Below are positions 860 to 40,207 of a DNA stretch of 51,729 nt, one piece after another (position 1 is the stretch's first letter; each line of letters begins with the position of its first letter). Origin of the DNA: Trichocoleus desertorum ATA4-8-CV12 (lineage in GTDB: Bacteria; Cyanobacteriota; Cyanobacteriia; FACHB-46); the NCBI GenBank assembly GCA_019358975.1, contig JAHHIL010000042.1:1-51729 (forward strand), given 5' to 3'. The notes beneath the pieces are model-generated. The model saw only the letters and a list, made by a program, of their open reading frames with translations. It was not told where the DNA came from and did not search any database. A program made the translations under genes and the position numbers.

Positions 860-947
860 CATCGATTTCGATCGCTCTCTAGGAGACTGTGTTTGTCTCC
901 TTTTCTATCTCATCTAATTGATAAGCAATGCAATCTGGAGAACGGAT

Positions 948-2918
948 ATGGGTAAACGTGCTTGGCTCTCTAACTTGATTGACAATGACTATCTCCCGGC
1001 GATCGCTCTGCTATCTGATTCTCCTCGGGGCAGGGCTAAGGCTCAACAACTCGTTACTCGCATGCGGCAAGAGTGGTCCGATCGCGGGGCTCTAGCTCTC
1101 AACCAACAGCAGAGTTTGATGGACCAAACTCGTAGGGCGATTAAAGACCAACTGGGGGAAGACCATTTCTCGCTCGACTATATCAAGTTCTCGACTGAGG
1201 AATACACTCAGCTCAATGATGAGAAGCAGCGATCGGTCTCAGAACGCAATGAAGATGTGAAGCAACTGCACAATCCAGATGGCATCGTGGCAACCGCTGT
1301 TCGCTTGCTGGAGTCGCCGGAGTGGGCAGAGGTGGCTGCGGCTCTGGCGGTACTGACGGGTAGACGTTCCAGTGAGCTACTTTCGACGGCCAAGTTTGAA
1401 CCCAAGACGCGCTGGAGTGTGGTCTTTACTGGAGCGCTTAAACGTGGGGGAGAAACGCAAACGCTCAGTTTTGAGATTCCCACGCTGACGACCTCGGAGA
1501 AGGTGTGCAAGGCTTTAGCCAAGATTAGATGTGAGTTACCGGAGGCGCTGGAGCTACCAGCCAAAGAGGTGAATGCTCGCTTTGGTTCCGCTGTCGCGGC
1601 GGCGTGCGATCGCCACTTCTCGGACTTGGTGCCTCCTAGAGCTGGAGGCAACCTCTACACCCACTTGTTTCGTGCTGTCTACGCCACGATCGCGACCTTT
1701 TGGTACTGTCCGTCTCGTGTAGACCCAGTGGAGTTTAGAGCGGCGATTCAAGGTCACTATGCGGTGCTCGATGAACACAATCCAGAACTCAGGCGATCCC
1801 TGGCCGCTTCTCGTCACTACGCCGATTTTGAGATTGCGGACTCGGTCATTGCTCAGTATGCAGGCAAGCGCAAGGGCATTAAGCTGGGCCTAGGCGGTAT
1901 TCAACCCATTGCTCCGTTTCAGCATCGAACGGATGACACTCCAACCAGAGAACGGCAGCGTCAGCAGCGTACTAGCCTGAGAATCTGGAAACACGACCAA
2001 CCCGCGATCGCTCAGATTTTGGAGCACTTTGACGGCAAACTCCAACCCGATAAGATGTCCGCTTGGGTCGCTTGGTCTCTACAGCAGTTGGCCGCAAAAG
2101 CGACAACTGCTGAGTTAGAAGAGGCGACAGTTGACGGGGTAAGGGAGGTGGAAATAAGCGAGGCGATCGCGACCACTGCAACACAAGAGGAATCTGTTGA
2201 TGAAACAGAAACAACTGAGGCGATCGCTTCCATTCCTGAAACTACTGATGCTGCACCACAGCCAATAGAGAAAAGCGAAGTCAGTGAACCAATCCAATCC
2301 ACCGAATCCATAAGCAATTTGTCTCTAGAGCAGCCAACAGCAAATGGATTGGAATCCAAACTCGACAAGCTCATCGATGTTATGGCTCAGTTCGTTCAGT
2401 TTCAACTTCAGGCTCAAACACCACAGACTCAACAGGCAACAGAGCAAAACGCGATCGCTCAAGCAAATTCAACTAAGGCGGCAGTACCGGAGATAGAGCC
2501 AATATCTCAACCCGCGATCGCTCAAGCAGGGACAACTACACTCCCAGCACCAGTACCAGAGCAAGTTCCAATAACCCAACCCGCGATCGCTAATCAGACT
2601 ATAGATACTCCGGAGAAGACAAACACTGAGGAAAGCAAACCGCGCAAATACAAAACTGGTGAAGCTGATGCGATCGTTCATCAGGCGATCGATGCCATCA
2701 TCCACCACAACAATCTGCCCAACCAGCTCCATGACCTCAAGTGGGCTATCACTATTAACGGATTGAAGAACTTCAGCACCAATCAAAGAGTGATTGAACG
2801 CATCATGCAGGAACGCAAAGACGAGATTGATGCCCATCATCAACTCCACCAACTCCTTCCCAAACACAACCACCGCCACAAGAGAAAACGTAAAATTGGC
2901 GATGTTATCCAACTCTGA
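948..2918 (+). CDS. protelomerase-like (telomere resolvase family) protein
   Basis: A 656-residue protein resembling the telomere-resolvase/protelomerase family of tyrosine-recombinase-fold enzymes, which cut and rejoin DNA at palindromic sites to make hairpin ends. Visible candidate active-site residues are Arg139/140 in LTGRRSSEL, Lys165 in GALKRGGE, His239 and Arg242 in YTHLFRAVYA, His270 in IQGH and a nucleophile-like Tyr291 in SRHYADFEI. These match the R-K-H/R-H-Y pattern of the family as I remember it in cyanobacterial members. Residues ~390-560 are a low-complexity Gln/Ala/Thr linker with HIP1-derived AIA motifs. The last ~95 residues are a basic, conserved domain ending in RHKRKRKIGDV, probably DNA-binding. 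I chose ATG 948 because GGAG lies 8 nt upstream; a TTG at 918 would add ten residues. Many cyanobacteria with circular replicons carry such proteins, so a linear replicon is not implied. Confidence 0.75.
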   Translation: MGKRAWLSNLIDNDYLPAIALLSDSPRGRAKAQQLVTRMRQEWSDRGALALNQQQSLMDQTRRAIKDQLGEDHFSLDYIKFSTEEYTQLNDEKQRSVSERNEDVKQLHNPDGIVATAVRLLESPEWAEVAAALAVLTGRRSSELLSTAKFEPKTRWSVVFTGALKRGGETQTLSFEIPTLTTSEKVCKALAKIRCELPEALELPAKEVNARFGSAVAAACDRHFSDLVPPRAGGNLYTHLFRAVYATIATFWYCPSRVDPVEFRAAIQGHYAVLDEHNPELRRSLAASRHYADFEIADSVIAQYAGKRKGIKLGLGGIQPIAPFQHRTDDTPTRERQRQQRTSLRIWKHDQPAIAQILEHFDGKLQPDKMSAWVAWSLQQLAAKATTAELEEATVDGVREVEISEAIATTATQEESVDETETTEAIASIPETTDAAPQPIEKSEVSEPIQSTESISNLSLEQPTANGLESKLDKLIDVMAQFVQFQLQAQTPQTQQATEQNAIAQANSTKAAVPEIEPISQPAIAQAGTTTLPAPVPEQVPITQPAIANQTIDTPEKTNTEESKPRKYKTGEADAIVHQAIDAIIHHNNLPNQLHDLKWAITINGLKNFSTNQRVIERIMQERKDEIDAHHQLHQLLPKHNHRHKRKRKIGDVIQL

Positions 2919-3926: not shown

Positions 3927-5273
3927 GTGGTAGACATCCGCAAGTTTTTTCGAGCGACCAATCCTAGCCAGACTCTGAATCCGGAGAAGGAGGAGGATCG
4001 CCAATACTACACCGATTTCTCTTCAGTGCGCGGAGGGCAGATTATTCAAGAATTGAAGGACAACATTTCCTTTTTTTCACCGGATGATCCAACCTGTGTG
4101 TTGTTCACAGGACACATTGGCTGCGGCAAATCGACGGAGTTGCTGCGGCTGAAAGCCGAGCTGGAGCAGGAAGGTTTTCATGTCGTCTATTTCGAGTCTA
4201 GCGAAGACTTAGAGATGGCAGATGTAGACATTGGCGACGTCATGTTGGCGATCGCCAAGCGGGTGAGTGAAAGTCTGGAAAAAGCCGAAGTCAATTCTCA
4301 AGCGACGGGCTTTCGAGCTTTGCTGGAAGGCACGATGAAAGTGCTGATGACGGAAGTGGATGTCACAGCCAAAACTAAGATTCCGGGAGTTGGGGCAGTT
4401 GGGGTCAATACTCAGGGAGAATTTTCACTCTCGGCAGGGATTGCAGAGCTAACCGTCGTTGCCAAGAATGACCAGACGCTGCGGGAGCGACTCAACCAAT
4501 ATCTGGCACCCCAGAAAAACAAGTTGCTGGATATGATCAATCGAGAGCTGCTTGAACCAGCGATCGTTCAGTTGAAACAGCAGGGCAAACGAGGGCTGGT
4601 GGTGATTGTGGACAACCTCGATCGCATTGACAATCGCACCAAATCTTTTGGTCGTCCGCAGCAGGAATATCTATTTATTGATCAAAGCGAATGTTTGACC
4701 AAACTCAGGTGTCATTTGGTTTACACGATGCCCTTGGCGCTAAAGTTTTCTAACGAGTATGGGATGCTGACCCAGCGCTATGAGGAACCCAAGGTGTTGC
4801 CGATGGTACCAGTGCAGTTGCAGGATGGCGGCGATTGTGAAGCAGGTTTAACTCTGTTACAGCAAATGGTGTTGGCAAGGGCTTTTCCTGATTTGGGTGA
4901 AGCGCAACAGTTCGAGAAAATTACCGAGGTTTTTGACCATCCTGAAACGCTCGATCGCCTATGTCGCGTCAGCGGTGGGCATGTCCGCGACCTGCTGCGA
5001 TTGCTGAATGACTGGCTCAAGAAGGGCAGACAGCTTCCTCTATCGGGTGCAATCCTAGAAGATGTCATTCGTGCCCGTCGCAATGAAATGACGATGCCTA
5101 TTTCAGATGATGAGTGGGAGCTGTTGCGACAGGTCAAGCAACGGAAGAAAGTTAGCGGCGATCAGGGATATCAAACGCTGATCCGCAGTCGGTTGGTGTT
5201 TGAGTATCGCGATCGCGGCGAGTCCTGGTTTAACGTCAATCCGATTTTGGCGGAGGCAAAGGAACTGCAATGA
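3927..5273 (+). CDS. P-loop ATPase partner of the WD40-STAND protein
   Basis: A 448-residue ATPase. Walker A is TGHIGCGKST around residues 62-70 (Lys68), and Walker B is GLVVIVDNLDRID around 223-233. A later YTMPLALKF stretch fits a sensor strand, and the C-terminal ~100 residues look like a winged-helix tail (LLRQVKQRKKVSG). The fold is AAA/STAND-like; the substrate is unknown. It starts at GTG with AGGAG eight nucleotides upstream. Its stop overlaps the next start as ATGA, so the two proteins are translationally coupled and probably act together. Cyanobacteria often carry such ATPase plus WD40/TPR STAND pairs, which are suspected defence or signalling devices. A role as an NTP-dependent activator of the large partner is inference. 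Confidence 0.65.
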   Translation: MVDIRKFFRATNPSQTLNPEKEEDRQYYTDFSSVRGGQIIQELKDNISFFSPDDPTCVLFTGHIGCGKSTELLRLKAELEQEGFHVVYFESSEDLEMADVDIGDVMLAIAKRVSESLEKAEVNSQATGFRALLEGTMKVLMTEVDVTAKTKIPGVGAVGVNTQGEFSLSAGIAELTVVAKNDQTLRERLNQYLAPQKNKLLDMINRELLEPAIVQLKQQGKRGLVVIVDNLDRIDNRTKSFGRPQQEYLFIDQSECLTKLRCHLVYTMPLALKFSNEYGMLTQRYEEPKVLPMVPVQLQDGGDCEAGLTLLQQMVLARAFPDLGEAQQFEKITEVFDHPETLDRLCRVSGGHVRDLLRLLNDWLKKGRQLPLSGAILEDVIRARRNEMTMPISDDEWELLRQVKQRKKVSGDQGYQTLIRSRLVFEYRDRGESWFNVNPILAEAKELQ

Positions 5274-8200
5274 CTGATCCGGGCACTCCTTTAGAGATTA
5301 CGGTTGACAACCAGAATGCGTTGGAGGAGCTTGCTTGGGCGATCGACATGTCTCAAGGGCAGTTTGCCCTGTTGCTAGCGCAATGCAACTATGTTCGATT
5401 GCGGACGCAGATAGCGGAGCAGTTACAGAAAATTTCTGCTGTGCCCATTCGAGTGGTGACGTTGCCAAAGTTGGCTACAACGCTTTATACCTCGCTCAAG
5501 GCAGAGTTGGGCGACGAGAAACCTGAAGCCGTAATGGTGTTTGGGCTGGACGAGTCCGAAAATCTGGATCAGTTGCTTGCTTCGACAAATCAAGTACGAG
5601 AGGAGTTTCGCCAAACTTTTCCATTTCCGCTGATCCTCTGGATCAATGATGATGTTCTCAAGAAGCTACTGCGATTGGCTCCTGATTTTCACAGTTGGTC
5701 TACGACTACATCGTTTGAGGTTACCAGCTCTGATCTGCTGGAATCTTTGCGTCAGGGAGCCAATGAACTATTTGCTACGCTTTTGACTGCTGAGACAAAT
5801 GCTTCCTTTAACAGGCTGTTTGCTCAGATAGATCTAGCAATTTTGCGCCAGCAGGAATTAGCAGCCGCATTGAGTGAGCTGCAAAAGCGAGGTCAGGTTC
5901 TAGAGCCAGCGCTGCAAGCTAGTCTGGGCTTTTTCCAAGGGGTCAGTGCTGGAACTGATTCTGAAGCCTTGACATACTTGCAGCGAAGTCTGGATTTTTG
6001 GCAGCAGACTAGCGACGACCCTAAAGGGGGAACTGCTTCACATTCCCAAAGCAACGGCATTGTTCCAGCCTCAAACCAACTCCGTGTAGCGCTGCTGCTT
6101 TTCTTTATTGGGCAGTACCAATATTACGTGACAGAGCAAGATAGAGCGCGATCGCCCGATTGGAAAAAGACCCAAGTTCCTCTCCAGCAAGCCATTGAGA
6201 TCTTTGAGCAAGCTAATCGTCCAGATTTAGCCGCTAAATGTATTACTCGCCTAGAGCGAGTGTTAGAGCGCGTGCCAGATTGGGATGCACTGGAAGCAGT
6301 GGCGCAAAAATCCCTAAAATTACATCAGTCCTACTGTCATCTCAGCAGGTTGGCTCAAGATTACCGCTACCTAGCAGAGGTGGCGTTGCGGCGACAGCGA
6401 GCAGCAGAGGCAAAATCGCTAGCTCAACAAGCATTAGATACTATAGCAAAGATTCCAGAAGACCAGCGATGGCAAGGGTTACATCTGCTGACGCTGGCTA
6501 GGGTGGAACGGCAGCTGGGCAATCAAGAGGGGGCGATCGCCCACCTAAAAGCAGCCTATGATTTAGGCGATCAAGGGTTCCCTCGCCTCTTCAGTGAGAT
6601 TCTGGCGGAGTTGCGAGACATCTACTTAGAGCAGAAGCACTATCTAGAGGCATTCCTACTGAAACAAACACGGCTCTCGGTAGAGCAGCAGTATGGCATT
6701 CGAGCATTTGTTGGGGCAGGACGGCTGAAGCCTAAGCGGGAAGACGCAGAACAACACATCAATCAAGCAAATTTAGCAGAATCAACTGAAGAAATTGCCC
6801 CAGAGATTCGAGCATCAGGACGGCAAAAAGACCTGGATGAACTGCTCCAGCGAATTGGCGACACCGAACACAGATTGATTGTGGTACACGGCTACTCTGG
6901 CGTGGGTAAGAGTTCGCTGGTGGTGGCGGGGTTGGTTCCAGCACTGCGGCAGAGGGCGATCGGTTTTCGCAATAATCTGCCGGTGCTGATTCGGGAGTAT
7001 AGCCGTTGGATGGCCGTACTGGGGCAGCAGTTAGTAACAGCAACAGGAGAGAGCAGCAACGCAGCTTCTGAGAATTCGGAGGAAGAAGCAAGCTGGGATC
7101 AGGCAGCATTTCTAAAACAGTTGCGGCAAAACGAGCAGCGCAACCTCCGTACGGTCCTAATTTTTGACCAGTTTGAGGAATTCTTTTTTGTCTATCCTGA
7201 TCCGGTCCAGCGTAGGCAATTTTTTGAGTTTTTAGGACAGTGTTTAGGGGTGCTGTCGGTTAAGGTAATTCTCTCTTTGCGGGAGGACTATCTCCACTAT
7301 TTGCTGGAGTGCAGCCGTCTTTCTAGCATCAAAACCACAGGAATTGATATTCTCAGCAGCAATGTGCTGTATGGGTTGGGCAATTTTTCGGCTGAGGATG
7401 CGAAGGCGATTATTCAAGACCTGACTGACCGCGCCCAATTTTATCTGGAACCCGCTTTGGTCGATGCCCTGGTTAATGACTTAGCCGGAGAATTGGGAGA
7501 GGTCAGACCGATCGAGCTACAGGTGGTGGGGGCACAGCTACAAGATGAAAATATCACCACGCTAGCGAACTACCAAACCTGCGGTGAAACGCCAAAACAA
7601 GAGCTGGTCAAACGCTATCTGGCACAATCGGTGACAGACTGCGGCAGCGAAAACCAGCAGATTGCCGAACTGGTGCTGTATCTGCTCACCGACGAAAAAG
7701 GAACTCGCCCGCTAAAGACGCGTCCTGAGGTGGAGCGAGATTTGCAGGCGCTGACTGGCATCCTGATTCAAACTGGCTCTGCCTTGGACGATGCTCTGAC
7801 ACTAGTGCTGTGCGTGTTTGTAGACTCCGGCTTAGTTGTGCTGTTGCCAGAAATCCCACTGGATCGCTATCAATTAGTGCATGACTATCTCGCAGCCTTT
7901 ATCCGCCAACAAGCTCCCCAGATCGATCGCCTGATCGCTGAACTCGAAGCAGAACGAAAACAGCGACGGCTAAGTGAAGAAGAACTGGTCAAAGAAAAGC
8001 AGTCCAAGCAGATTTTAGAAGCCGCTCACCAGGAGGCGAAAAAAATTGCTCGTCTGGAGCGAGTGGGCATGCAGGCAATGCGGCAGTTTGAGTTTGCCCA
8101 ACTTGAGGCGCTCACTTCAGCCGTACAAACCGGAGAAGACTTACGAATGCTGATGCACGAGCGGGGTGAAGATGTTTATTCAGCGACTAGCCCCGTTCTG

Positions 8201-10252
8201 GCACTTCAAACGATCTTAGACGCCATTCAAGAGCAAACTCACTTTAGGGGGCATCAGGGCTACGTCAGAAGCGTCAGTTTCAGTCCCAATGGCACGCAGA
8301 TTGTCAGCGCTGGAGACGATAGCACCGTCCGACTGTGGAACCTCGATGGACAACAGGTGCAGCAGTTTAAGGGACATCAGACCCCTATTAGAAGCGTCAG
8401 TTTCAGTCCCAATGGCACGCAGATTGTCAGCGCTGGAGACGATAGCACCGTCCGACTGTGGAACCTCGATGGACAACAGGTGCAGCAGTTTAAGGGACAT
8501 CAGACCCCTATTAGAAGCGTCAGTTTCAGTCCCAATGGCACGCAGATTGTCAGTGCCGGAGCTGATGGCACCGTCCGACTGTGGAACCTCGATGGGGAGG
8601 AGGTGCAGCAGTTCAAGAAACATCAGGGCAGTGTCATTAGCGTCAGTTTCAGTCCCGATGGCACGCAGATTGTCAGTGCCGGAGCTGATGGCACCGTCCG
8701 ACTGTGGAACCTCGATGGGGAGGAGGTGCAGCAGTTCAAGAAACATCAGGGCAGTGTCATTAGCGTCAGTTTCAGTCCCGATGGCACGCAGATTGTCAGT
8801 GCCGGAGCTGATGGCACCGTCCGACTGTGGAACCTCGATGGGGAGGAAGTGCAGCAGTTTAAGGGGCATCAGACCCCTATTAGAAGCGTCAGTTTCAGTC
8901 CCAATGGTACGCAGATTGTCAGCGCTGGAGACGATGGCACCGTCCGACTGTGGAGCCTCGATGGACAACAGGTGCAGCAGTTCCGAGGACATCAGACCCC
9001 TGTCAGTAGCGTCAGTTTCAGTCCCGATGGCACGCAAATTGTCAGCGCTGGAGTCGATTTTACCGTCCGACTGTGGAGCCTCGATGGACAACAGGTGCAG
9101 CAGTTCCAAGGACATCAGGGCAGTGTCATTAGCGTCAGTTTCAGTCCCGATGGCACGCAAATTGTCAGTGCCGGAGCTGATGGCACCGCCCGCCTTTGGA
9201 ACCTCGATGGGGAAGAGATGCAGCAGTTCAAGGGACATCAGACCCCTGTCAGTAGCGTCAGTTTCAGTCCCGATGGCACGCAGATTGTCAGTGCCGGAGA
9301 CGATGGCACGGCACGACTGTGGAGCCTTGATGGACAACAGGTGCAGCAGTTCCAAGGACATCAGGGCTACGTCAGTAGCGTCAGTTTCAGTCCCGATGGC
9401 ACGCAGATTGTCAGTGCCGGAGCTGATGGCACCGCCCGCCTTTGGAACTTGGATGGGGAAGAGATGCAGCAGTTCAAGGGACATCAGGGCATTGTCAGTA
9501 GCGTCAGTTTCAGTCCCGATGGCACGCAGATTGCCAGTGCCGGAGCTGATGGCACCGTCCGACTGTGGAACCTGGATGGGGAGGAGGTACAGCAGTTCCG
9601 AGGACATCAGGACTATGTCAAAAGCGTCAGTTTCAGTCCCGATGGCACACAGATTATCAGTGCCGGAGACGATGGCACGGCACGGCTGTGGAACCTGGAT
9701 GGGGAGGAGGTGCAGCAGTTCCGAGGACATCAGAGTGATGTTAATAGCGTCAGTTTCAGTCCCAATGGCACGCAGATTGTTAGTGCCGGAGCTGATGGCA
9801 CCGCCCGCCTTTGGAACCTCGATGGGGAGGAGGTACAGCAGTTCCGAGGACATCAGGGCATTGTCTGGAGCGTCAGTTTCAGTCCCAATGGCACACAGAT
9901 TGTCAGTGCCGGATACGATGGCATGGCAAAATTACTTCCGGTTCTAGACCTGAATCAACTTTTAAGGAGAGGCTGCGCCTATCTCAACAACTTCTTGATT
10001 GCCTATCCCGATCGCCTCAAAACCCTAACAGCTTGCCATGATGACTCCGATCGCCTTGCTGCGGCTGCCCCTAATTTAGTAAAAGAGGCAGAAGCACAGG
10101 CAAGAGCAGGGAATGTGGATGCTGCGATTGATAACTTCCGTACTGCCCTGCAATGGAATCCCAGCCTTAACATTGATGATCCTGAAGCCAAAGCAAACCA
10201 GTTGGCATCCGAAGGAAAAGCTCAACGTCTAGTTAGCGAGAGTGAGGCTTAG
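5270..10252 (+). CDS. nSTAND1-type NTPase with 14 WD40 repeats
   Basis: A 1660-residue STAND protein. Order: an N-terminal ~170-residue domain of unknown function; a helical TPR-like region (~180-480); an NTPase with Walker A GYSGVGKSS (541-549) and Walker B LIFDQFEEFF (~630-639), typical of nSTAND1; a helical region; a charged coiled coil (~885-935); 14 WD40 repeats of 41 residues (~992-1560), enough for two seven-bladed propellers; and a short TPR-like tail. STAND proteins normally sit inactive until a ligand binds their repeats, then oligomerise on NTP and trigger an effector. Here the N-terminal domain or the upstream ATPase would be the output. The gene stops at 10250-10252, but homologous tail sequence continues out of frame (next entry), so the C-terminus was lost recently. 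No catalytic effector motif is obvious. Confidence 0.75.
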   Translation: MTDPGTPLEITVDNQNALEELAWAIDMSQGQFALLLAQCNYVRLRTQIAEQLQKISAVPIRVVTLPKLATTLYTSLKAELGDEKPEAVMVFGLDESENLDQLLASTNQVREEFRQTFPFPLILWINDDVLKKLLRLAPDFHSWSTTTSFEVTSSDLLESLRQGANELFATLLTAETNASFNRLFAQIDLAILRQQELAAALSELQKRGQVLEPALQASLGFFQGVSAGTDSEALTYLQRSLDFWQQTSDDPKGGTASHSQSNGIVPASNQLRVALLLFFIGQYQYYVTEQDRARSPDWKKTQVPLQQAIEIFEQANRPDLAAKCITRLERVLERVPDWDALEAVAQKSLKLHQSYCHLSRLAQDYRYLAEVALRRQRAAEAKSLAQQALDTIAKIPEDQRWQGLHLLTLARVERQLGNQEGAIAHLKAAYDLGDQGFPRLFSEILAELRDIYLEQKHYLEAFLLKQTRLSVEQQYGIRAFVGAGRLKPKREDAEQHINQANLAESTEEIAPEIRASGRQKDLDELLQRIGDTEHRLIVVHGYSGVGKSSLVVAGLVPALRQRAIGFRNNLPVLIREYSRWMAVLGQQLVTATGESSNAASENSEEEASWDQAAFLKQLRQNEQRNLRTVLIFDQFEEFFFVYPDPVQRRQFFEFLGQCLGVLSVKVILSLREDYLHYLLECSRLSSIKTTGIDILSSNVLYGLGNFSAEDAKAIIQDLTDRAQFYLEPALVDALVNDLAGELGEVRPIELQVVGAQLQDENITTLANYQTCGETPKQELVKRYLAQSVTDCGSENQQIAELVLYLLTDEKGTRPLKTRPEVERDLQALTGILIQTGSALDDALTLVLCVFVDSGLVVLLPEIPLDRYQLVHDYLAAFIRQQAPQIDRLIAELEAERKQRRLSEEELVKEKQSKQILEAAHQEAKKIARLERVGMQAMRQFEFAQLEALTSAVQTGEDLRMLMHERGEDVYSATSPVLALQTILDAIQEQTHFRGHQGYVRSVSFSPNGTQIVSAGDDSTVRLWNLDGQQVQQFKGHQTPIRSVSFSPNGTQIVSAGDDSTVRLWNLDGQQVQQFKGHQTPIRSVSFSPNGTQIVSAGADGTVRLWNLDGEEVQQFKKHQGSVISVSFSPDGTQIVSAGADGTVRLWNLDGEEVQQFKKHQGSVISVSFSPDGTQIVSAGADGTVRLWNLDGEEVQQFKGHQTPIRSVSFSPNGTQIVSAGDDGTVRLWSLDGQQVQQFRGHQTPVSSVSFSPDGTQIVSAGVDFTVRLWSLDGQQVQQFQGHQGSVISVSFSPDGTQIVSAGADGTARLWNLDGEEMQQFKGHQTPVSSVSFSPDGTQIVSAGDDGTARLWSLDGQQVQQFQGHQGYVSSVSFSPDGTQIVSAGADGTARLWNLDGEEMQQFKGHQGIVSSVSFSPDGTQIASAGADGTVRLWNLDGEEVQQFRGHQDYVKSVSFSPDGTQIISAGDDGTARLWNLDGEEVQQFRGHQSDVNSVSFSPNGTQIVSAGADGTARLWNLDGEEVQQFRGHQGIVWSVSFSPNGTQIVSAGYDGMAKLLPVLDLNQLLRRGCAYLNNFLIAYPDRLKTLTACHDDSDRLAAAAPNLVKEAEAQARAGNVDAAIDNFRTALQWNPSLNIDDPEAKANQLASEGKAQRLVSESEA
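8245..9966 (+). repeat. 14 tandem 123-bp WD40-coding repeats
   Basis: Each unit encodes GHQ-xxV/I-xSVSFSPxGTQI and then SAGxDGTxRLWxLDGxxxQQF. Units 4 and 5 (8617-8862) are identical at DNA level over nearly the whole unit, and units 1-3 nearly so. Variation concentrates at residues 4-7 of each unit (GYVR, TPIR, GSVI, TPVS, GIVS, DYVK, SDVN, GIVW) and at the SAGxD position. Such homogeneity shows recent duplication or gene conversion. Long open frames on both strands here are by-products of the stop-free repeat. Confidence 0.95.
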
Positions 10253-13544: not shown

Positions 13545-16500
13545 CTAAACCTCGAAGGGATCGAGTAGAGTTTCTGTAGAAACCTGCGTGCGTTGATGCT
13601 GGTAATAGGATTTGACAGCTTGCCTCAGCGCTTTCAACTTTTCGTGATCGTTGGAGAGGCAAATAAGCAGGTCTGAATCATCGCTAGATTCTATTGCCTC
13701 GATTCTGCAAAGATTAGCTCTAACAAGTTGAAGATAATCACCTCTTGTTAACTGATTGCCAATCTGTTTTGCTAAATCCACGCAAACTGGTGGCAAGCCA
13801 AGATTGAGTCTTATAAGTAATCGATTAACTCGTTCTTCTAAGTCAAGGATAGGATGAAGAATACTGGCAATTTGAGAAACTGTAGGTAACAAATCACTCG
13901 TTCGTGCTGCAATATCTCGGATTGCCCCTGCTGCACCTCCTGGTGAACCACCAAATTGAGTTAAAGCAGCTTCAATGTCACTTATGCTTCTCTGTGTAAC
14001 AAAAAAGAGGCAGGCAATTGCTTTTTTGGCTCTTAAGGTTGCTTGATGAGGCATCACTGTATTTTGAGCAAGTTTATTGAGCAGGCTTAAAGGTACGTTC
14101 TGTCTCTGTAGCTCCTGCCTCCAAAATAAAGGTTCTTTATTCGTACTGCGTCGGTTAATTGGAAAAAGCATTTGATCTAGCTCTACAGTTAACTGCACAG
14201 CAGTTAGCAAAGTTGGCTCATGAATTGAGTCTGGGTCCAAACCAGCTAGAGCATTAATAATCCGAATAATTGATTCAACCTCTACTCCAGCCTGCCCCGT
14301 TAACTGTCCAAGTGCAGTTAGACAATAGAATCCGTTCTCATTTTGCTCCACAAGGCCATGAGTCAGTAAGCTCTGAATTGCCTCTATGATTTGTGAGCGG
14401 CTCCATTGCCAATGTTGTGAAGCCTGAGTTTGCTGGAATGCTCCAAAACTAGCTTCTAAAAATTCAGTAATATCCTCAGCACTAATACCACGCTTCACAA
14501 TCTGCTGAACGGATGTGAGTACACGAATAATCAATGATCTTGGATCAGTTGTAGTACTGAGAAAACGAGATACAAGATCTTCTGGCTCACCTTCAACATA
14601 ACGTTGCCAGAGATAATGCTGATCATGAGGTGTCAATGCTAAAAGATAGGATGTACCCTTTTCTGCATATCCTAGACGTCCTGCTCGTCCTACTAAATTT
14701 TTATATTCTGCAATTGAGTAAGGTTTTTTGCTGTTGTTTGGAGCAGGATGATTCAGTCCCACAACGATAATGGATGAAGCAGGTGTATTAATACCCATTG
14801 CTAAAGTTGTAGTAGCAGCGATTACACGCAGAGTTGTATCTTCTGCGCGAAAGTGTTCTTCAACTACACGTCTTTCATCGGGTGCAAGCTCACTGGTATG
14901 AAAAGCAATTCCACTTTGGAGAACAGCGTGTAGATCCTCTGAAGCTTTAGAACGATCTCCACCTGGTAAAGCAGCCAGAGCTTCCTGTGCGGAGGGTAAG
15001 TTTAATGCTCTAGCCAAATACTGGGCGCATCCTCTAGCTTCTCCTTTCGTTTCCCGAAACACAATTACTTGCTGCCCTTCACTTACCAACTTTTGAACTA
15101 ATGGAATAACCCAGTCCTGGCTCGTTCCTTTGTGCTTTAAAGGGAGGATAAGAGGCTCTGTTATATGTTTTTTACCTAATATACCGTCAATAAAATGAAA
15201 GCTTCCATCTCTTAGCAGTAAACCCTCATCTAGTGGAATAGGGCGCTCATTACGTCTGAGTAAGCGTGCTCCAAGCCAACGCTCCAGTCCGCTGGTGTCA
15301 CCGATAACCGCAGAAAGAGCTATGATTTGAGGATTAATCCCATGTTGACGTTGTACTCGTAACAGCGTCAGTATAAATTCTAGATTAACTCCACGAGATT
15401 CATCTGCAATCATTTGCACTTCATCAACAACAATGGTTCCGACCTGATTCAGAATATGAGGATTGCTCAGAACAATTGCAGCAAACTTTTCATAAGTCAT
15501 CAGGCACAAATCATACTGACCACGCAGTAGCGGCGTAATGTCGTCTGTTTCCCCAGTAGCGGCGATCGTTAAAATACCAAACGCTCCATAAACCTTGATA
15601 AAGCTTCTCAACTTGTCGTTGACTAATGCCTTTAGAGGGAGTAGAAACAAACCTCGCCTACGCTCTAAAGCTCCCTTTAAAGCTGCAAGCTCACCAATCA
15701 TCGTCTTACCAGATGAAGTAGGCGCTGAGACGACCAAATTTTCACCTTCAAGGATTTTGTATTCGTTGATTGCATCAATTTGTAGCGAGTTTAGAGATGG
15801 AATATTACTTGCCCATAAGCGTAGTAACTCAGTTGGAAATCCATAGGTTTCGAGACTATAAATATCTGTAGTGACTTGAGTTTGTGCTCGTTCAGGAAAC
15901 GCAGCAAAATAACACTTTCCTGGTTTGAAGATAGGCCATAGTAGTTCTCCTTCAAATTGTCCACGAACAGTAGGATGCTGTGTTTGACCAAGCTGTGTAG
16001 AAGCATCAATCACTCGCTTGGTTACAAAATCCAACAATTGGTAGACAGGTAGTTTGCCAGCTTGCTGAACTTCTTCAGCACCCTGCAAAGCCTCCAACAG
16101 ATGATAGGTGAGCAGCCCGTGGCCATAACGAGTATTTTCATAGGCAGGTTCAGTCGCACTAGAAGCTGTTAAAATTAGCCGTCCTTCTCCAGATAGCTCC
16201 AAAAGAAGGTTTTCTGTGGACTTTAAACCTCGTGCTGTTGTCTCAACATGCAGGACTTTCGCTCCTATACCACCGGAGAAACAGCAATCTAAAACGCAAA
16301 TTAAATGACGTGTAGGAATGCTACAAACAAGCTCAGACAACCTTTCTAAGGCAATAGATGTATTCTCTACATCATAAATTTCAGTATCGTAGGTGACCAG
16401 TTGATGCGTTTCTGAACCATGTCCTGAGAAGGTTACCACCACTACGTCATCATAATCACACAGTGATAGCTTCGTAAGTTGCTCTTGAATAGCAGAACAT

Positions 16501-16655
16501 GTAGCATCTTGGTCTACTAGAAGAGTAGTTTCGCCACCAAATGCATCAGTAAACAAAGCATGTAGTGCTATTGCATCACGCTTTGCACAATTTAACCAAG
16601 AGATGCTAGGCGAAGCATAACGATCGATACCAACGAATAGTCCATAAAAAGCCAT
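13545..16655 (-). CDS. caspase domain fused to Ski2-like DExH helicase
   Basis: About 1036 residues. The N-terminal ~240 residues are a caspase-fold peptidase (C14) with His in VTFSGHGSE (~79) and Cys in VLDCCFSGG (~125). The rest is a superfamily 2 helicase: motif I APTSSGKT (~311-318), Ia LLPLKALVNDK, II VVDEVQMI (DEVQ ~411-414), III ALSAV, IV VIVFRETKGEA, V IAATTTLAMGINTPA and VI LVGRAGRLG. This set fits Ski2-like/HelZ enzymes that unwind nucleic acid. A helical C-terminal part follows. The start is chosen at ATG 16655, preceded by AGGAAA; a TTG 24 nt upstream is possible. It is 40 bp downstream of the Argonaute gene and last in the operon. The fusion suggests nucleic-acid sensing or processing coupled to proteolysis, possibly of the host's own proteins. 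That is inference. Confidence 0.85.
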   Translation of the reverse strand: MAFYGLFVGIDRYASPSISWLNCAKRDAIALHALFTDAFGGETTLLVDQDATCSAIQEQLTKLSLCDYDDVVVVTFSGHGSETHQLVTYDTEIYDVENTSIALERLSELVCSIPTRHLICVLDCCFSGGIGAKVLHVETTARGLKSTENLLLELSGEGRLILTASSATEPAYENTRYGHGLLTYHLLEALQGAEEVQQAGKLPVYQLLDFVTKRVIDASTQLGQTQHPTVRGQFEGELLWPIFKPGKCYFAAFPERAQTQVTTDIYSLETYGFPTELLRLWASNIPSLNSLQIDAINEYKILEGENLVVSAPTSSGKTMIGELAALKGALERRRGLFLLPLKALVNDKLRSFIKVYGAFGILTIAATGETDDITPLLRGQYDLCLMTYEKFAAIVLSNPHILNQVGTIVVDEVQMIADESRGVNLEFILTLLRVQRQHGINPQIIALSAVIGDTSGLERWLGARLLRRNERPIPLDEGLLLRDGSFHFIDGILGKKHITEPLILPLKHKGTSQDWVIPLVQKLVSEGQQVIVFRETKGEARGCAQYLARALNLPSAQEALAALPGGDRSKASEDLHAVLQSGIAFHTSELAPDERRVVEEHFRAEDTTLRVIAATTTLAMGINTPASSIIVVGLNHPAPNNSKKPYSIAEYKNLVGRAGRLGYAEKGTSYLLALTPHDQHYLWQRYVEGEPEDLVSRFLSTTTDPRSLIIRVLTSVQQIVKRGISAEDITEFLEASFGAFQQTQASQHWQWSRSQIIEAIQSLLTHGLVEQNENGFYCLTALGQLTGQAGVEVESIIRIINALAGLDPDSIHEPTLLTAVQLTVELDQMLFPINRRSTNKEPLFWRQELQRQNVPLSLLNKLAQNTVMPHQATLRAKKAIACLFFVTQRSISDIEAALTQFGGSPGGAAGAIRDIAARTSDLLPTVSQIASILHPILDLEERVNRLLIRLNLGLPPVCVDLAKQIGNQLTRGDYLQLVRANLCRIEAIESSDDSDLLICLSNDHEKLKALRQAVKSYYQHQRTQVSTETLLDPFEV

Positions 16656-16695
16656 AACTAATTTCCTAGCTTGAGTCAAAGGTTAGTGTTGCGGA

Positions 16696-18939
16696 CTAGA
16701 GCCAAAATTGGCGATCGCACTCAGGCACATAGACACCATTCAGGCGCAAATCCGCCAACCGATCAGCGCCATGCAATAACATCGGCAAGCGGGGCGGCTT
16801 CAGAGCACCATGATGGAGTAGGGTCAGCTTCAAAGTGGCATCCATGATCTGCTCGATCGATGCTGGATGCCCTTCAGAGCGAACTGTTAGGCGAATGGGA
16901 CGAGGAACCCCAATTCTGCCACTGACCTGGGTCGTGACCAGAATGGCTTCATGACTAGAGAGTTTCAACCCAAGTCCGCGAGTCGGAGCCGCAATGCTAC
17001 GTCCCCGGTCAGAGTTTGATCGCGGAAGGTTATAAAGCCTTGACGTACCTGACTTACGACACTCAACCAGGATGAACTGCGATTGGATTGCCGCTGCCCA
17101 GTTCAATAGGTGAGTAACCTCATCGCCGCAAAAACGTCCATCTCGGTAAATTAGAACTGTTTTCCCTCTCAATGCACCGGCTGGTAGCAGTGCCTCCAGA
17201 AACCGTTGCGGAATTTCTTCTCCCTCGATCGCAGCATCTTCCGACTTTGCCCGAATAAATTCTCCTCGATTACCGTACAAGCAGACTCCGGCACAGGCAT
17301 TCATGCTGCCCGACAACCGCCGCTTCTTGGAGCGCGCCACGTCTAGCCCAATAAACACATCGGCAACCTGCAAGGGTTCTGCCAGAACGAAAGGAACGTT
17401 TCCTAATTTCGCTAGCACTCCCAGCATCACCTGATTCAAAACGTATCGAGTTTCTTTCCGAAGCGTCTCCTCATAGATGAACTGACTAGCGATCTGGCGG
17501 CGCAGCAGCTTTGAGTAAATGCGATGGTAGAGGCTACCGCTCTCGTCATCATCAGAACCGCGATCGCTCTGAGGTAGAAATACAAACATGATGTCCGGCT
17601 TGATCGTCATCAACTCATCCAGTTTGTCCTCTAGAGTCGCTCGACCCTCTGGACTGTTCCAGTTGTCCACCAAAATGGCTTCGGTGCTGGGGTTGAGTTC
17701 TAAGCTGGGAAACTTGTAGCGCTCGAGTTGCTGCCGCACCTGCTGCATAAACCCATTAACCTGTGCTTCAGGCTTGAGCAGATTGAGTACCACGAGCCGA
17801 ATGGGTCTTTCTGAAACGTTTTGATAGTCCCGGTGCCGCTGATAAACTCCCCCATTTTCCAATCCACGCAGGATGCCGTTGTAGAGTCCTGTCACACCCT
17901 GTCCAAATTGAATCGGTGTTTGCTCAATCGGGTGCTCTGGTACCCAGAACAAGTCCCCGTTGTCTCTCCCGTTAATCGCTTTGAGGAATTGAATGTTGTA
18001 GGGTCGCAGTGCTTCCTTTGCAGCTGCACTGTATTCCTTCAGAAGTTGCTGACGATCTGCATACGGTATTTTGGTTTGCTCCAGCAGAGTGCCAAAATCA
18101 ATGTCTAACTGATTTGCGGTTTCGGCAGTGACGCAGGGTCGCAATGCCGCCATTGCATAGGGGTAGAGGCGTTTGCTGTTTTGCCCAAAGCGTACAGCCA
18201 CCACCGGTTGCTCTGCCGGAGCTTCCTCCAACGCTTTACGGCTAATAGCGCCACTAGCTTTTGTGAGTAGATATGTACGATGCTCCGCGATCGTTCCAAC
18301 AATCTCTTCGATCGTCGCAGTGCTATCGGTATCTAGGGTTTCAACCTTCAAACTGACCAGTAACCTCTCAGGGTTCTGGCGGTAGGGGTGATTCGCCAAA
18401 AAACCATCCAATGTCCCTTGAAACGTAATGCGGCTGTGGGGAGATAGCGCGATCGCAGGATGAGGCATTTGATTGATTTCGACCGTCTCTGCCCCAAAGT
18501 CTGCTCTTCGCTTGACCTCAATGTTCTGCTCCGAATATACAGTCTTGGGTCGAAATGGTTGGCTAACATCCAAAATCTGTTCTGCAAAGGCGGCAATGAT
18601 GTCTGGAGTCATCTGCGGATTTCGCGATCGCTGAAATCGCCACTCTGGATCGGATGGTTCATAAATCTCACGGTGGATGTACTCCAGTGCCCCCGCCCAT
18701 TCTGCATCCGTTGGTAGGGTTTGCTCCTGGTTCGCTAGGGCATAAAAAAGACCGTTCTTCCAAACGACAATGACGTTTGGGAAGTAACGTGAAAAACGGT
18801 AACTCAGCCGCAACCCATCCTCACGGTCTGTAAGCGGAGACAGGCGAAAGCTAACCAGATTTAGGTCGGTGTGACCCAGGGCAAAAATCTCGCTCAGGCA
18901 ATTTTTATCCTGAAGAGATTGAGTGGCTAATGCAATCAT
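16696..18939 (-). CDS. long prokaryotic Argonaute, probably catalytically active
   Basis: About 747 residues with full pAgo layout: N and PAZ-like region (to ~330), MID (~450-520) and PIWI. MID shows a Y-K...Q...K type 5'-phosphate pocket (IYSKLLRRQIASQF, then VLAKLGNVPF). PIWI shows the DEDX tetrad: Asp in FIGLDVAR, Glu in AIEGEEI, Asp in LIYRDGRF and Asp in LLHGADRLADL near the C-terminus. It resembles the long-A cyanobacterial group (Synechococcus/Limnothrix type) that uses DNA guides to cut DNA. The start at 18939 has GGAG nine nt upstream and leaves 14 bp after the Cas4-like stop; ATG 18999 would overlap that gene. It lies between the Cas4-like nuclease and the caspase-helicase in one operon. 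Confidence 0.9.
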   Translation of the reverse strand: MIALATQSLQDKNCLSEIFALGHTDLNLVSFRLSPLTDREDGLRLSYRFSRYFPNVIVVWKNGLFYALANQEQTLPTDAEWAGALEYIHREIYEPSDPEWRFQRSRNPQMTPDIIAAFAEQILDVSQPFRPKTVYSEQNIEVKRRADFGAETVEINQMPHPAIALSPHSRITFQGTLDGFLANHPYRQNPERLLVSLKVETLDTDSTATIEEIVGTIAEHRTYLLTKASGAISRKALEEAPAEQPVVAVRFGQNSKRLYPYAMAALRPCVTAETANQLDIDFGTLLEQTKIPYADRQQLLKEYSAAAKEALRPYNIQFLKAINGRDNGDLFWVPEHPIEQTPIQFGQGVTGLYNGILRGLENGGVYQRHRDYQNVSERPIRLVVLNLLKPEAQVNGFMQQVRQQLERYKFPSLELNPSTEAILVDNWNSPEGRATLEDKLDELMTIKPDIMFVFLPQSDRGSDDDESGSLYHRIYSKLLRRQIASQFIYEETLRKETRYVLNQVMLGVLAKLGNVPFVLAEPLQVADVFIGLDVARSKKRRLSGSMNACAGVCLYGNRGEFIRAKSEDAAIEGEEIPQRFLEALLPAGALRGKTVLIYRDGRFCGDEVTHLLNWAAAIQSQFILVECRKSGTSRLYNLPRSNSDRGRSIAAPTRGLGLKLSSHEAILVTTQVSGRIGVPRPIRLTVRSEGHPASIEQIMDATLKLTLLHHGALKPPRLPMLLHGADRLADLRLNGVYVPECDRQFWL

Positions 18940-18953
18940 GGGTAGATGCTCCA

Positions 18954-19760
18954 CTAAATGGTAAATTGACAAACGGATTGGAACTGGCAGGTCTGGCATT
19001 GGTAGCCGGAATGGGGCGGAAAGATTTCCTCAAACGATGCTAATTTACGCCTGTAGCGCTGCAAGTCGTTCTGATGTTGCTGGGCGAACCGGAATAAATC
19101 CATTTCCAACACTTGCAATTGCACTGACAATGCACGAATTGGATCTGACCAGGTTTGGGATTCAAGGTTATAGAAAGAGGCGATCGCCTCGTAGTTGGGG
19201 TAGAGATACTTAGCGGCCAGTAGGTAGACATAGGCTTGGCGGCGATCGAAGTCTGATTTGCCAGTTTTGAAGTCTAGAATGTGGAGCGTACCGTCCGGTT
19301 CAACAAAAATACAGTCGATTGCAGCAAAGAGATTACACTCTTGATTGCCCGAACGTAGCAAGATTGGCTCAGGAAATCCTTCATCTCCTCGGCTCAGTTT
19401 CAGAATGTTTTTGCCCAGCAGAATTGGAGTCACCTGATAGTTAGCCAGGACTTGGGTGACACGATTGCGAACCTCCTGACTTCTGTTTTCTAAACCCAAG
19501 ATTGCTGACACTCGGTTCACACCATCGTCACCAATTAGGCAATGTACGTCCTGATGAAATTCGTAAATTCCCTGTTGCGCCAGCAACCCGATCTCCTGAT
19601 AGACCGTTTCCTGCTGAATCAGCGGGGCAACCTCTGGTTCTTTAGCACGAGCTTTCAGAAAACCCCGCTTCATCGGGCAGTGCCGCTGTTCCTGACCGAT
19701 TGCTGGCTCAAACAGGGCCCAGAGGTTGTAACTGAAAAATGGTTTCCAAACAGTCTGCAT
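18954..19760 (-). CDS. Cas4-like PD-(D/E)XK nuclease with C-terminal cysteines
   Basis: 268 residues. The nuclease core is AAIDCIFVEPDG followed by LHILDFKTGK, with Asp and DxK as catalytic residues and a preceding His/Glu region. The C-terminus has the CQTCQFQSVC motif that, with an upstream Cys, usually binds a 4Fe-4S cluster in Cas4/AddB-type exonucleases. Cas4-like nucleases next to long Argonautes have been noted in cyanobacteria, and a role in processing DNA ends into guides or targets is plausible. First gene of the operon: GAGGAG lies ~9 nt before ATG 19760. The 223 bp upstream is the divergent control region shared with the XRE gene. Confidence 0.8.
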   Translation of the reverse strand: MQTVWKPFFSYNLWALFEPAIGQEQRHCPMKRGFLKARAKEPEVAPLIQQETVYQEIGLLAQQGIYEFHQDVHCLIGDDGVNRVSAILGLENRSQEVRNRVTQVLANYQVTPILLGKNILKLSRGDEGFPEPILLRSGNQECNLFAAIDCIFVEPDGTLHILDFKTGKSDFDRRQAYVYLLAAKYLYPNYEAIASFYNLESQTWSDPIRALSVQLQVLEMDLFRFAQQHQNDLQRYRRKLASFEEIFPPHSGYQCQTCQFQSVCQFTI

Positions 19761-19890: not shown

Positions 19891-19909
19891 GTTGATTTTT
19901 CTCGTCAAC
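19891..19909. promoter_or_regulatory. XRE operator-like palindrome 1
   Basis: GTTGA-N9-TCAAC, part of a 20-bp motif TGTTGATTTYTSTCGTCAAC that is repeated 41 bp downstream. The spacing of about four helical turns places both copies on the same DNA face. Confidence 0.65.
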
Positions 19910-19931: not shown

Positions 19932-19950
19932 GTTGATTTCTGTCGTCAAC
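19932..19950. promoter_or_regulatory. XRE operator-like palindrome 2
   Basis: Second GTTGA-N9-TCAAC copy, 34 bp before the XRE start codon. It overlaps the region just downstream of the putative -10 box, where bound repressor would block transcription (autoregulation). Confidence 0.65.
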
Positions 19951-19983: not shown

Positions 19984-20352
19984 ATGGTGGATCAAACCTT
20001 TGGTAAACGGCTTCGAGAAGCTCGGCGGAGCAAGGGTTACAGCCAACGAGAGCTTGCAGGTTTCGTTGACGTTGATTACACCTATCTGTCCAAGCTGGAA
20101 AACGATCGCGCCGATTATCCTCCAAAGGAAGATGTGCTTCGGGCACTGGCTCGCCATCTTGAGCTAGATGCTGAAGAACTCAGCTACCTGGCAGGTCGAA
20201 TTACAGCAGAAGACGCAAAGGTGGTACAAGACTTAGCGAAAACGCATCAAAAACAAATGCCAGTTCTACTCAGAACAATTCGTGATAACCCTGCGATCGC
20301 ACAGCGAATTTTGCAAGAGGCACAACAGGAAGAGCACCCGGAGGACTTATAG
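19984..20352 (+). CDS. XRE-family transcriptional repressor
   Basis: A 122-residue protein with an N-terminal Cro/C1-type helix-turn-helix (FGKRLREARRSKGYSQRELA, then DYTYLSKLEND) and a helical C-terminal part. ATG 19984 is preceded by GGGAGG at five to six nt. The next gene begins immediately after its stop. Repressors coupled to ImmA/IrrE-like peptidases (as in ICEBs1 ImmR/ImmA and phage-type systems) are inactivated by cleavage on DNA damage or other stress. The divergent position and twin operators suggest that it controls both itself and the Argonaute operon. Confidence 0.85.
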   Translation: MVDQTFGKRLREARRSKGYSQRELAGFVDVDYTYLSKLENDRADYPPKEDVLRALARHLELDAEELSYLAGRITAEDAKVVQDLAKTHQKQMPVLLRTIRDNPAIAQRILQEAQQEEHPEDL

Positions 20353-21078
20353 GTGGGAGTGATCAAGCCGCATAGACAACTCAACAAGAAACAGATTGAA
20401 CAGCAGGCTGATAAAGTCCTTGCAGCGATGCAATCCAATGACTTTATGCCTAAGAAGTGGTCGAACCTGGCTGAACGCACGGCTGACTTCTTTGACCTCT
20501 GCGTTGACTGGGTGCCCTTCGACCCGAAGCAAGACGGCATTGTCGCTGCGAAAATCTATCCCACAGACAAGCGAATTGAATTGAACTTGGATTTTCAAGC
20601 CTTACACACTAATGAAGGGCTTTACCAATCAACTGTAAGTCACGAGGTTGGGCACTGGGTGCTACAGATCAACCAGGCGGAAGCGGAGGGAACCATCTTT
20701 CAGGGTGAACTTCCTCTGACGCCAGCTATGGATAGGGAAATCTTTCTATGCCGAACTGTAGACGAGCAGATGCTTTATCAGACGACCCAGAGAACCCAAA
20801 GTGATTGGCGCGAGTGGCAAGCACAATATTTTTCCAGTTGCCTGCTTATGCCCCAATTCAAGATTGAGGAGGCCCGCAAAGGACGGAACTTGTTGAACTG
20901 GAACCACCTGAAAGCTATCCAGGAAGAGTTAGGAGTTTCGCAACGGAATTTGGTACATCGGCTGAAAGATCTGGAGTTGATTGAGGAAAGCGGCAGGCGG
21001 CTTTATCCCGGTAGAAGGCTGAAGTCTGGTGAGCCGTTATTGGCAAGTTGGCAGGAATCGTCATCTACCCCAGATTAA
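20353..21078 (+). CDS. ImmA/IrrE-type metallopeptidase
   Basis: 241 residues with the zinc-peptidase motif SHEVGHWVL (HExxH) around residue 97 and a downstream region (VDEQMLYQTTQRTQ, then WQAQYFSSCLLMP) typical of ImmA/IrrE family proteins (formerly DUF955), in which a later Glu or Asp is the third ligand. The C-terminal ~60 residues look like a second small winged helix (ISQRNL-type VSQRNLVHRLKDLEL). GTG start directly after the XRE stop, with GGAGG ~9 nt upstream inside the XRE gene, so the two are coupled. The expected role is to cleave the XRE repressor on a signal. Confidence 0.85.
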   Translation: MGVIKPHRQLNKKQIEQQADKVLAAMQSNDFMPKKWSNLAERTADFFDLCVDWVPFDPKQDGIVAAKIYPTDKRIELNLDFQALHTNEGLYQSTVSHEVGHWVLQINQAEAEGTIFQGELPLTPAMDREIFLCRTVDEQMLYQTTQRTQSDWREWQAQYFSSCLLMPQFKIEEARKGRNLLNWNHLKAIQEELGVSQRNLVHRLKDLELIEESGRRLYPGRRLKSGEPLLASWQESSSTPD

Positions 21079-39474: not shown

Positions 39475-40205
39475 GGCGTTGCAGAATAGAAGTATGAATT
39501 GAGGCTATTCTTGATGCAATGTCCTGAGTGTGGCTCCACTCATATCCGTAAGAATGGGAAAAAGCGAGGTAAACAGAATCACATCTGCGTGACTTGCTCT
39601 CGCCAGTTCCTCGACCACTACGAGCCTCACCTAGGCTACTCGGATGAGGTCAAACGAGAATGCTTGAAGATGTACGTCAACGGCATGGGATTCCGTGGCA
39701 TTGAACGAGGTCATTGCGAGTGCATCACACCACTGTGATTAACTGGGTCAAACAAGTGGCTCAGCATCTCCCCGATGCTTATGACCCAGAAACAGTTCCG
39801 CAGGTCGGAGAACTGGATGAACTGGAAACCTTTGTTGGGGCTAAAAAAACAAAATCTGGCTCTGGACGGCAGTTGACCACTTCACCTGTGGAATTTTAGG
39901 GTGGGTGTTAGGGGATCACAGCGCCGAGACCTTTACTCCCTTATGGGCAATTGTCGCTCAATGGCAGTGCTACTTCTATGTGACGGATGGATGGAGTGTT
40001 TATCCTGGTTTTATTCCAGAGGGTGACCAGATTGTGAGCAAGACCTACATGACCCGAGTCGAGTCAGAAAATACCCGCTTACGGCACTATCTAGCTCGTC
40101 TGCATCGCAAGACGTTGTGCTATTCCAAGAACGAGGAAATGCTGAGACACTCGATTCGCTTGTTACTTCACTACTTGAAATTCTGGGATGTACCTGTTCC
40201 AGCTT
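39475..40205 (+). mobile_element. IS1-family insertion sequence
   Basis: A ~730-bp element containing an IS1-type transposase in two or three frames. It splits the 3' end of the Avs-like gene. The exact ends are uncertain: a weak terminal similarity was seen but no convincing inverted repeat or 8-9 bp duplication. Confidence 0.6.
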
Positions 40206-40207
40206 AG
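39511..40207 (+). pseudogene. IS1-family transposase in three frames
   Basis: Begins MQCPECGSTHIRKNGKKRGK with a zinc-finger-like CPxC...CxxC, then SRQFLDHYEPHLGYSDEVKR. The frame shifts near 39715 (GFRGIERG to VHHTTVINWVKQ) and again by -1 at the A7C run near 39844 (FVGAKKTK to WLWTAVDHFTCGILGWVLGD), ending LLHYLKFWDVPVPA. The second shift resembles the programmed A6C slippage of IS1. The first looks like a true indel, so the element is probably dead. Confidence 0.75.

What the first reader, a model, noticed from the sequence alone, without database searches (positions are those of the whole stretch)
13545..19760. Argonaute operon with Cas4-like nuclease and caspase-helicase fusion
Seen: three genes on the minus strand with gaps of 14 and 40 bp (Cas4-like nuclease, long pAgo with an apparently complete DEDX tetrad, caspase-Ski2-like helicase). 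Known: long cyanobacterial pAgos use DNA guides, Cas4-like nucleases can neighbour them, and caspases act as death effectors in several bacterial defences. Inference: guided cleavage or helicase processing of invader DNA is coupled to a proteolytic suicide output. I do not recall a described pAgo system with this exact composition.
Basis: partly seen in the sequence, partly recalled or inferred. Interest (0 to 1): 0.92.

Follow-up and report, generated by a model that had tools for sequence, protein, structure and literature searches.

The report
Argonaute–Cas4 operon beside unrelated caspase-helicase
A cyanobacterial contig, probably a plasmid, carries a known type of DNA-cutting defence (an Argonaute paired with a Cas4-like nuclease) under an apparently damage-responsive genetic switch, and next to it sits a separately acquired, widespread caspase-helicase gene that is not a regular partner of the Argonaute.

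Summary
The three genes are real and correctly placed: Cas4-like nuclease, long pAgo with a complete DEDD tetrad, and a caspase–helicase, on the minus strand with gaps of 14 and 40 bp. The proposed three-part system is not supported. Cas4-like plus pAgo is a conserved pair: 18 of 18 cyanobacterial relatives have it. The caspase–helicase is a stand-alone gene found in about a dozen phyla. None of 92 other loci has a relative of this pAgo or Cas4 nearby. None of the 18 pAgo genomes has the caspase–helicase, and none of 7 cyanobacteria with the caspase–helicase has this pAgo. Its third-position GC is 30% against 53% for pAgo and Cas4, so it looks later acquired. It may now be co-transcribed with pAgo. 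Its likely operator, GTTGA-N9-TCAAC, usually doubled, lies in 13 of 16 such intergenic regions (25 sites; shuffles average 0.24). Best reading: a damage-inducible Cas4–pAgo module with a captured caspase–Hel308 gene downstream. Induction, protease activation and any death output are inferred, not shown.

The parts
13545..16655 (-). Caspase (C14, residues ~1-240) fused to a Hel308-like helicase (~259-1020), 1036 aa; stand-alone family, probably a later arrival here
16696..18939 (-). Long pAgo with complete DEDD tetrad
18954..19760 (-). Cas4-like PD-(D/E)XK nuclease with four invariant Cys (C28, C255, C258, C264), D163-x-K165 and Q175...Y179
19891..19909 (.). Putative operator 1, GTTGATTTTTCTCGTCAAC
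19932..19950 (.). Putative operator 2, GTTGATTTCTGTCGTCAAC; its half-sites form the -35 boxes of two opposed promoter-like sites
19984..20352 (+). HTH (XRE/CapH/ImmR-like) repressor, divergent from cas4-pAgo
20353..21078 (+). ImmA/IrrE (M78, CapP-like) metalloprotease with H97-E98-x-x-H101 and invariant C133

Best explanation
Two modules lie end to end. Module A is a conserved cyanobacterial invader-DNA defence: a Cas4-like nuclease and a DNA-cutting long pAgo, transcribed divergently from an HTH repressor and an ImmA/IrrE-type protease. The repressor probably binds two 19-bp palindromes overlapping the opposed promoters. DNA damage or ssDNA, as produced by phage, plasmid replication or uptake, would activate the protease, remove the repressor, and switch on cas4-pAgo. 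Module B is an independent, mobile caspase–Hel308 gene that was inserted just downstream of pAgo and may now be read from the same promoter. On its own it most likely uses the Hel308 domain to engage abnormal DNA and the caspase to cleave proteins when activated. Shown here: gene content, conserved motifs, conserved neighbours and operator, absence of co-occurrence, and the GC3 break. Inferred: repression, damage induction, protease activation, guided cleavage and caspase output.
For: Cas4-like directly upstream of pAgo in 18/18 cyanobacterial relatives; divergent HTH in 15/18 (one degenerate), ImmA/IrrE in 14/18. GTTGA-N9-TCAAC: 25 sites in 13 of 16 HTH-bearing intergenic regions against 0.24 expected from shuffles, and 0 of 3 where the HTH gene is absent; pairs usually 38-45 bp apart and overlapping TTGAC...TATAAT promoters. 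PADLOC capH and capP models match the pair (E 1e-11 and 2e-13); HExxH and one Cys invariant. Caspase–helicase is full-length and solo in about a dozen phyla with varied neighbours. No co-occurrence with this pAgo. GC3 0.30 against 0.53-0.56 for pAgo, Cas4, IrrE and ParA (Fisher p 3e-22 for pAgo). In S. elongatus, both SeAgo and a Cas4-like nuclease limit RSF1010 plasmids (PMC10653904).
Against: No expression, binding or induction data exist for this locus. Seven of the 18 pAgo relatives come from one family, so they are not all independent. The PADLOC capH/capP matches are modest, and phmmer found no CapP structure for the protease, so the exact trigger (ssDNA, RecA or another) is unknown. The 40-bp gap leaves no room for a separate caspase–helicase promoter unless one lies inside pAgo, which is compatible with functional coupling. 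The genome search is a sample, and the 80 best genome-contig loci were kept out of 152.
Confidence: 0.78

Rival explanations
1. Integrated three-gene system: pAgo/Cas4 detect or process invader DNA and the caspase–helicase delivers a suicide output.
For: Tight same-strand spacing (40 bp), no promoter-like site in the gap, so probable co-transcription; caspases serve as effectors in other bacterial defences (PMC12799240).
Against: No co-occurrence elsewhere in either direction; GC3 break at the junction; the caspase–helicase is conserved without pAgo in about a dozen phyla.
Confidence: 0.12
2. Plain co-location of two independent defence genes in a plasmid cargo region, with no shared expression or function; the caspase–helicase has its own promoter inside pAgo. 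(A sub-case of the two-module reading that denies the shared transcript.)
For: Varied neighbours and frequent integrases or plasmids around other copies; Spirosomataceae plasmids carry a copy near a different pAgo on the opposite strand.
Against: 40-bp spacing on the same strand is typical of co-transcription; no internal promoter was demonstrated.
Confidence: 0.35
3. The HTH/IrrE pair is a separate toxin–antitoxin-like or mobile-element regulator that merely flanks cas4-pAgo.
For: HTH–ImmA/IrrE pairs also regulate integrative elements (best PDB match of the HTH is the ICEBs1 Xre-family regulator).
Against: Conserved divergent arrangement in 14-15/18 relatives and an operator conserved in the shared promoter region, missing where the HTH is missing.
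Confidence: 0.1

Closest known systems
Cyanobacterial long-A pAgo with Cas4-family nuclease (PDB 9iad with 9iab/9iac; SeAgo and Cas4-like of S. elongatus, PMC10653904; Cas4 orthogroups of Ryazansky 2018, PMC6299218). A 2025 study of cyanobacterial Argonautes cooperating with Cas4-family nucleases is known to me from memory only.
   Same: Same pAgo and Cas4-like families, same order, intact catalytic residues
   Different: Here followed by a caspase–helicase; the HTH–ImmA/IrrE switch and its operator are not mentioned in the papers I could read
CapH–CapP and ImmR–ImmA repressor–protease switches (PMC13373217 summarises CapH+CapP as ssDNA-activated control of immune operons)
   Same: HTH gene followed by HExxH protease, divergent from a defence operon, palindromic operator at the promoter
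   Different: Controls a pAgo operon; ssDNA activation and repressor cleavage untested; sequence similarity modest
Hel308 / DNA polymerase theta helicase domain
   Same: Whole helicase fold including C-terminal domains (Foldseek TMt 0.85-0.88 for Hel308, VIA Z 32.7)
   Different: N-terminal caspase domain fused; about 22-24% identity
Hachiman (HamAB) and Canu (caspase–nuclease), PMC12799240
   Same: Ski2-like helicase coupled to an effector; caspase as defence protease
   Different: No HamA nuclease, no MBL-fold nuclease or Ig-like domain found here; helicase and caspase in a single protein
Bacterial metacaspases with helicase domains (Asplund-Samuelsson 2012, PMC3501461: 12 of 671 carry helicase activity)
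   Same: Caspase–helicase architecture already noted in general
   Different: No function assigned there; not linked to pAgo

Membership tests
Cyanobacterial pAgo–Cas4 system | Full-length long pAgo homologous to the solved cyanobacterial-type Ago | tested here: met
   9iad aligned over 34-767, E 3e-231
Cyanobacterial pAgo–Cas4 system | Complete DEDX tetrad | tested here: met
   D553, E594/E595, D620, D746
Cyanobacterial pAgo–Cas4 system | Adjacent Cas4-like nuclease with PD-(D/E)XK motif and four Cys | tested here: met
   upstream in 18/18 relatives
Cyanobacterial pAgo–Cas4 system | DNA-guided DNA cleavage and plasmid interference | not testable with these tools
   Biochemical
CapH–CapP-type regulator | HTH protein next to M78/IrrE protease, divergent from a defence operon | tested here: met
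CapH–CapP-type regulator | HExxH zinc motif | tested here: met
   H97-E98-x-x-H101 invariant in 14 aligned sequences
CapH–CapP-type regulator | Palindromic operator in the shared promoter | tested here: met
   25 sites in 13/16 loci vs 0.24 expected
CapH–CapP-type regulator | ssDNA-activated cleavage of the repressor | not testable with these tools
   Needs biochemistry; invariant C133 is suggestive only
Three-gene pAgo–Cas4–caspase–helicase system | Conserved co-occurrence of the three families | tested here: not met
Hel308 helicase | Full Hel308 fold and SF2 motifs | tested here: met
Hel308 helicase | NCBIfam Hel308 equivalog cut-off | tested here: not met
   200.6 bits against a cut-off of 1200; so Hel308-like, not Hel308
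Caspase (C14) | His–Cys dyad | tested here: met
   H79 in 55/55, C125 in 54/55; Pfam E 5e-15
Hachiman | HamA partner gene | tested here: not met
   No HamA match among the operon and regulator proteins scanned
Canu | MBL-fold nuclease partner and Ig-like domain | tested here: not met
   No such domain in the three operon proteins by Pfam

The most novel reading that the evidence does not exclude
The caspase–Hel308 gene has been captured under a damage-inducible switch and now acts with pAgo and Cas4, so that DNA ends made by the Argonaute module load the helicase and trigger proteolytic cell death, making this a guided-nuclease system with a caspase output.
Probability: 0.1. Interest if true: 0.85.

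Novelty: new variant of a known kind. Interest (0 to 1): 0.52.

Why it matters
How long pAgos are kept from harming their host is little understood. A conserved repressor–protease pair with a recognisable operator in front of cas4-pAgo would mean these systems are switched on by damage, and that can be tested directly. Separately, the caspase–Hel308 fusion is a widespread, apparently uncharacterised single-gene candidate that joins a DNA-repair-type helicase to a death-type protease.

Tried and rejected
Conserved three-gene operon: rejected by co-occurrence searches. First phylum-wide search for the caspase–helicase scored only two candidates per genome and was therefore repeated on chosen genomes. 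Obligate partner of the caspase–helicase: none found; a DUF2158-like small gene (13 loci) and a ~200-aa gene (6 loci; one copy resembles PDC-S54) recur only in subsets. Pfam and PADLOC scans of 121 neighbours show mixed genes, several of defence type, without a dominant partner. Viral contigs: one caspase–helicase, no pAgo of this type. Phmmer found no CapP structure for the IrrE protein. Fold search with the whole caspase–helicase model was dominated by the helicase, so the caspase half was not tested by structure. Contig ends show no overlap, so no proof of circularity, and no terminal inverted repeat longer than 11 bp. No paper held links Argonaute with IrrE. No Rfam match in the window. 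A search of the papers for the 2025 cyanobacterial Argonaute–Cas4 study found none held.

Full report
Observation. The three minus-strand ORFs exist as described. Families are unambiguous: Cas4-like (PADLOC Aga_Cas4-like_Nuc; PDB 9iab and 9iac), pAgo (PADLOC pAgo_II; PDB 9iad), caspase plus helicase (Pfam C14, DEAD, Helicase_C). The PIWI tetrad is D553-E594/595-D620-D746; D746 aligns with AaAgo D683. Cas4-like keeps four invariant cysteines and the D163-x-K165 and Q175...Y179 motifs.

The pAgo pair. In 386 cyanobacterial genomes, 22 have a pAgo match; the 18 closest relatives other than the window's own all have the Cas4-like gene directly upstream. The whole window is contig 42 of a 6.06-Mb cyanobacterial genome.

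The missed partner. Divergent from cas4-pAgo lie an HTH gene and an ImmA/IrrE metalloprotease (19984-21078, plus strand). PADLOC's capH and capP models match them. Among 18 relatives, 15 have the HTH (one of them degenerate) and 14 the protease. The protease keeps HExxH and one Cys in all 14 sequences aligned, the window's included. The intergenic region carries GTTGA-N9-TCAAC twice in the window (19891-19909, 19932-19950). Across 19 regions there are 25 sites (at most one mismatch) in 13 loci, all among the 16 with an HTH gene; 300 shuffle rounds averaged 0.24 and never exceeded 2. Spacer letters differ between loci while half-sites are kept, and the sites overlap TTGAC...TATAAT promoters. 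Seven of the 18 relatives are from one family, so the effective sample is smaller. I read this as a repressor–protease switch; that it answers to DNA damage is inferred from CapH+CapP (PMC13373217) and not shown here.

The caspase–helicase. The fusion is nearly full-length in 12 plasmids (37-59% identity) and in 80 genome loci from cyanobacteria, proteobacteria, Bacteroidota, actinobacteria, Patescibacteria, Acidobacteriota, Chloroflexi, Planctomycetes, Verrucomicrobia and others. H79 and C125 of the caspase and all helicase motifs checked are conserved. The AlphaFold2 model (pLDDT 86.7) matches Hel308 and the polymerase theta helicase domain over residues 259-1023 (Foldseek TMt 0.85-0.88 for Hel308; VIA Z 32.7, rmsd 2.9 over 682). 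Neighbours vary: restriction, Septu-, BREX-, TIR-, caspase- and integrase-type genes, many on plasmids or near integrases.

Are they one system? No relative of this pAgo or Cas4 lies within the fetched flanks (up to 10 kb) of any of 92 caspase–helicase loci (one of them held twice) by tblastn or profile search; two near-identical Spirosomataceae plasmids carry a different pAgo 2.5 kb away on the other strand. None of 18 pAgo genomes has the caspase–helicase and none of 7 cyanobacterial caspase–helicase genomes has this pAgo; essentially the same queries do find the window's own genome. GC3 is 0.30 in the caspase–helicase and 0.53-0.56 in pAgo, Cas4, IrrE and the window's ParA. So the gene is a separate, later arrival. 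Because only 40 bp separate it from pAgo, it may now share the promoter; that is untested.

How it works. Module A: repression by HTH at two operators; protease activation by damage or ssDNA; expression of Cas4-like nuclease and pAgo; DNA-guided attack on plasmids or phage. The last step rests on work on relatives: in S. elongatus loss of ago or of a Cas4-like gene favours RSF1010 plasmids (PMC10653904). Module B: Hel308-like motor engages abnormal DNA, caspase cleaves proteins; inferred from domains only.

Novelty. The pAgo–Cas4 pair is known. Caspase–helicase architecture was counted in 2012 (PMC3501461) but I found no functional study. The regulatory pair with its operator was not found in connection with Argonaute in the papers I could search; subscription papers were not available.

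Noticed in passing
window 918-2918 (+): Telomere resolvase (ResT/TelK, Pfam E 1e-29). The own genome has further matches on C33 and C79, and 14 of 373 cyanobacterial genomes pass the cut-off, several near contig ends; this contig may be a linear plasmid with hairpin ends.
   Followed up: partly
L156 (G000:C21) 6693-8846: A second, different pAgo (PADLOC PDLC02387 / PprPIWI-like) in the same genome.
   Followed up: partly
window 40204-44643 (-): 1479-aa AAA protein with weak LmuA-like N-terminus (PADLOC E 9e-8).
   Followed up: no
window 5270-10252 (+): 1660-aa protein with at least 14 WD40 repeats; the repeats also create long overlapping ORFs in other frames.
   Followed up: no
L142, L146: Two cyanobacterial relatives lacking the HTH gene also have His in place of the last PIWI Asp and stop codons in the pAgo match, suggesting decay together with loss of the switch.
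   Followed up: partly
L039-L044, L047, L053, L063: Nearly identical islands with caspase–helicase and a tyrosine integrase in Bradyrhizobium, Sphingomonas, Xanthobacter and others: recent spread of a mobile element.
   Followed up: partly
L031, L107: Plasmid-type regions of Spirosomataceae with a caspase–helicase near a different pAgo plus its own helicase on the opposite strand.
   Followed up: partly
L023, L024, L050, L068: A ~200-aa gene directly upstream of the caspase–helicase; the L024 copy resembles the N-terminal half of PADLOC candidate PDC-S54.
   Followed up: partly
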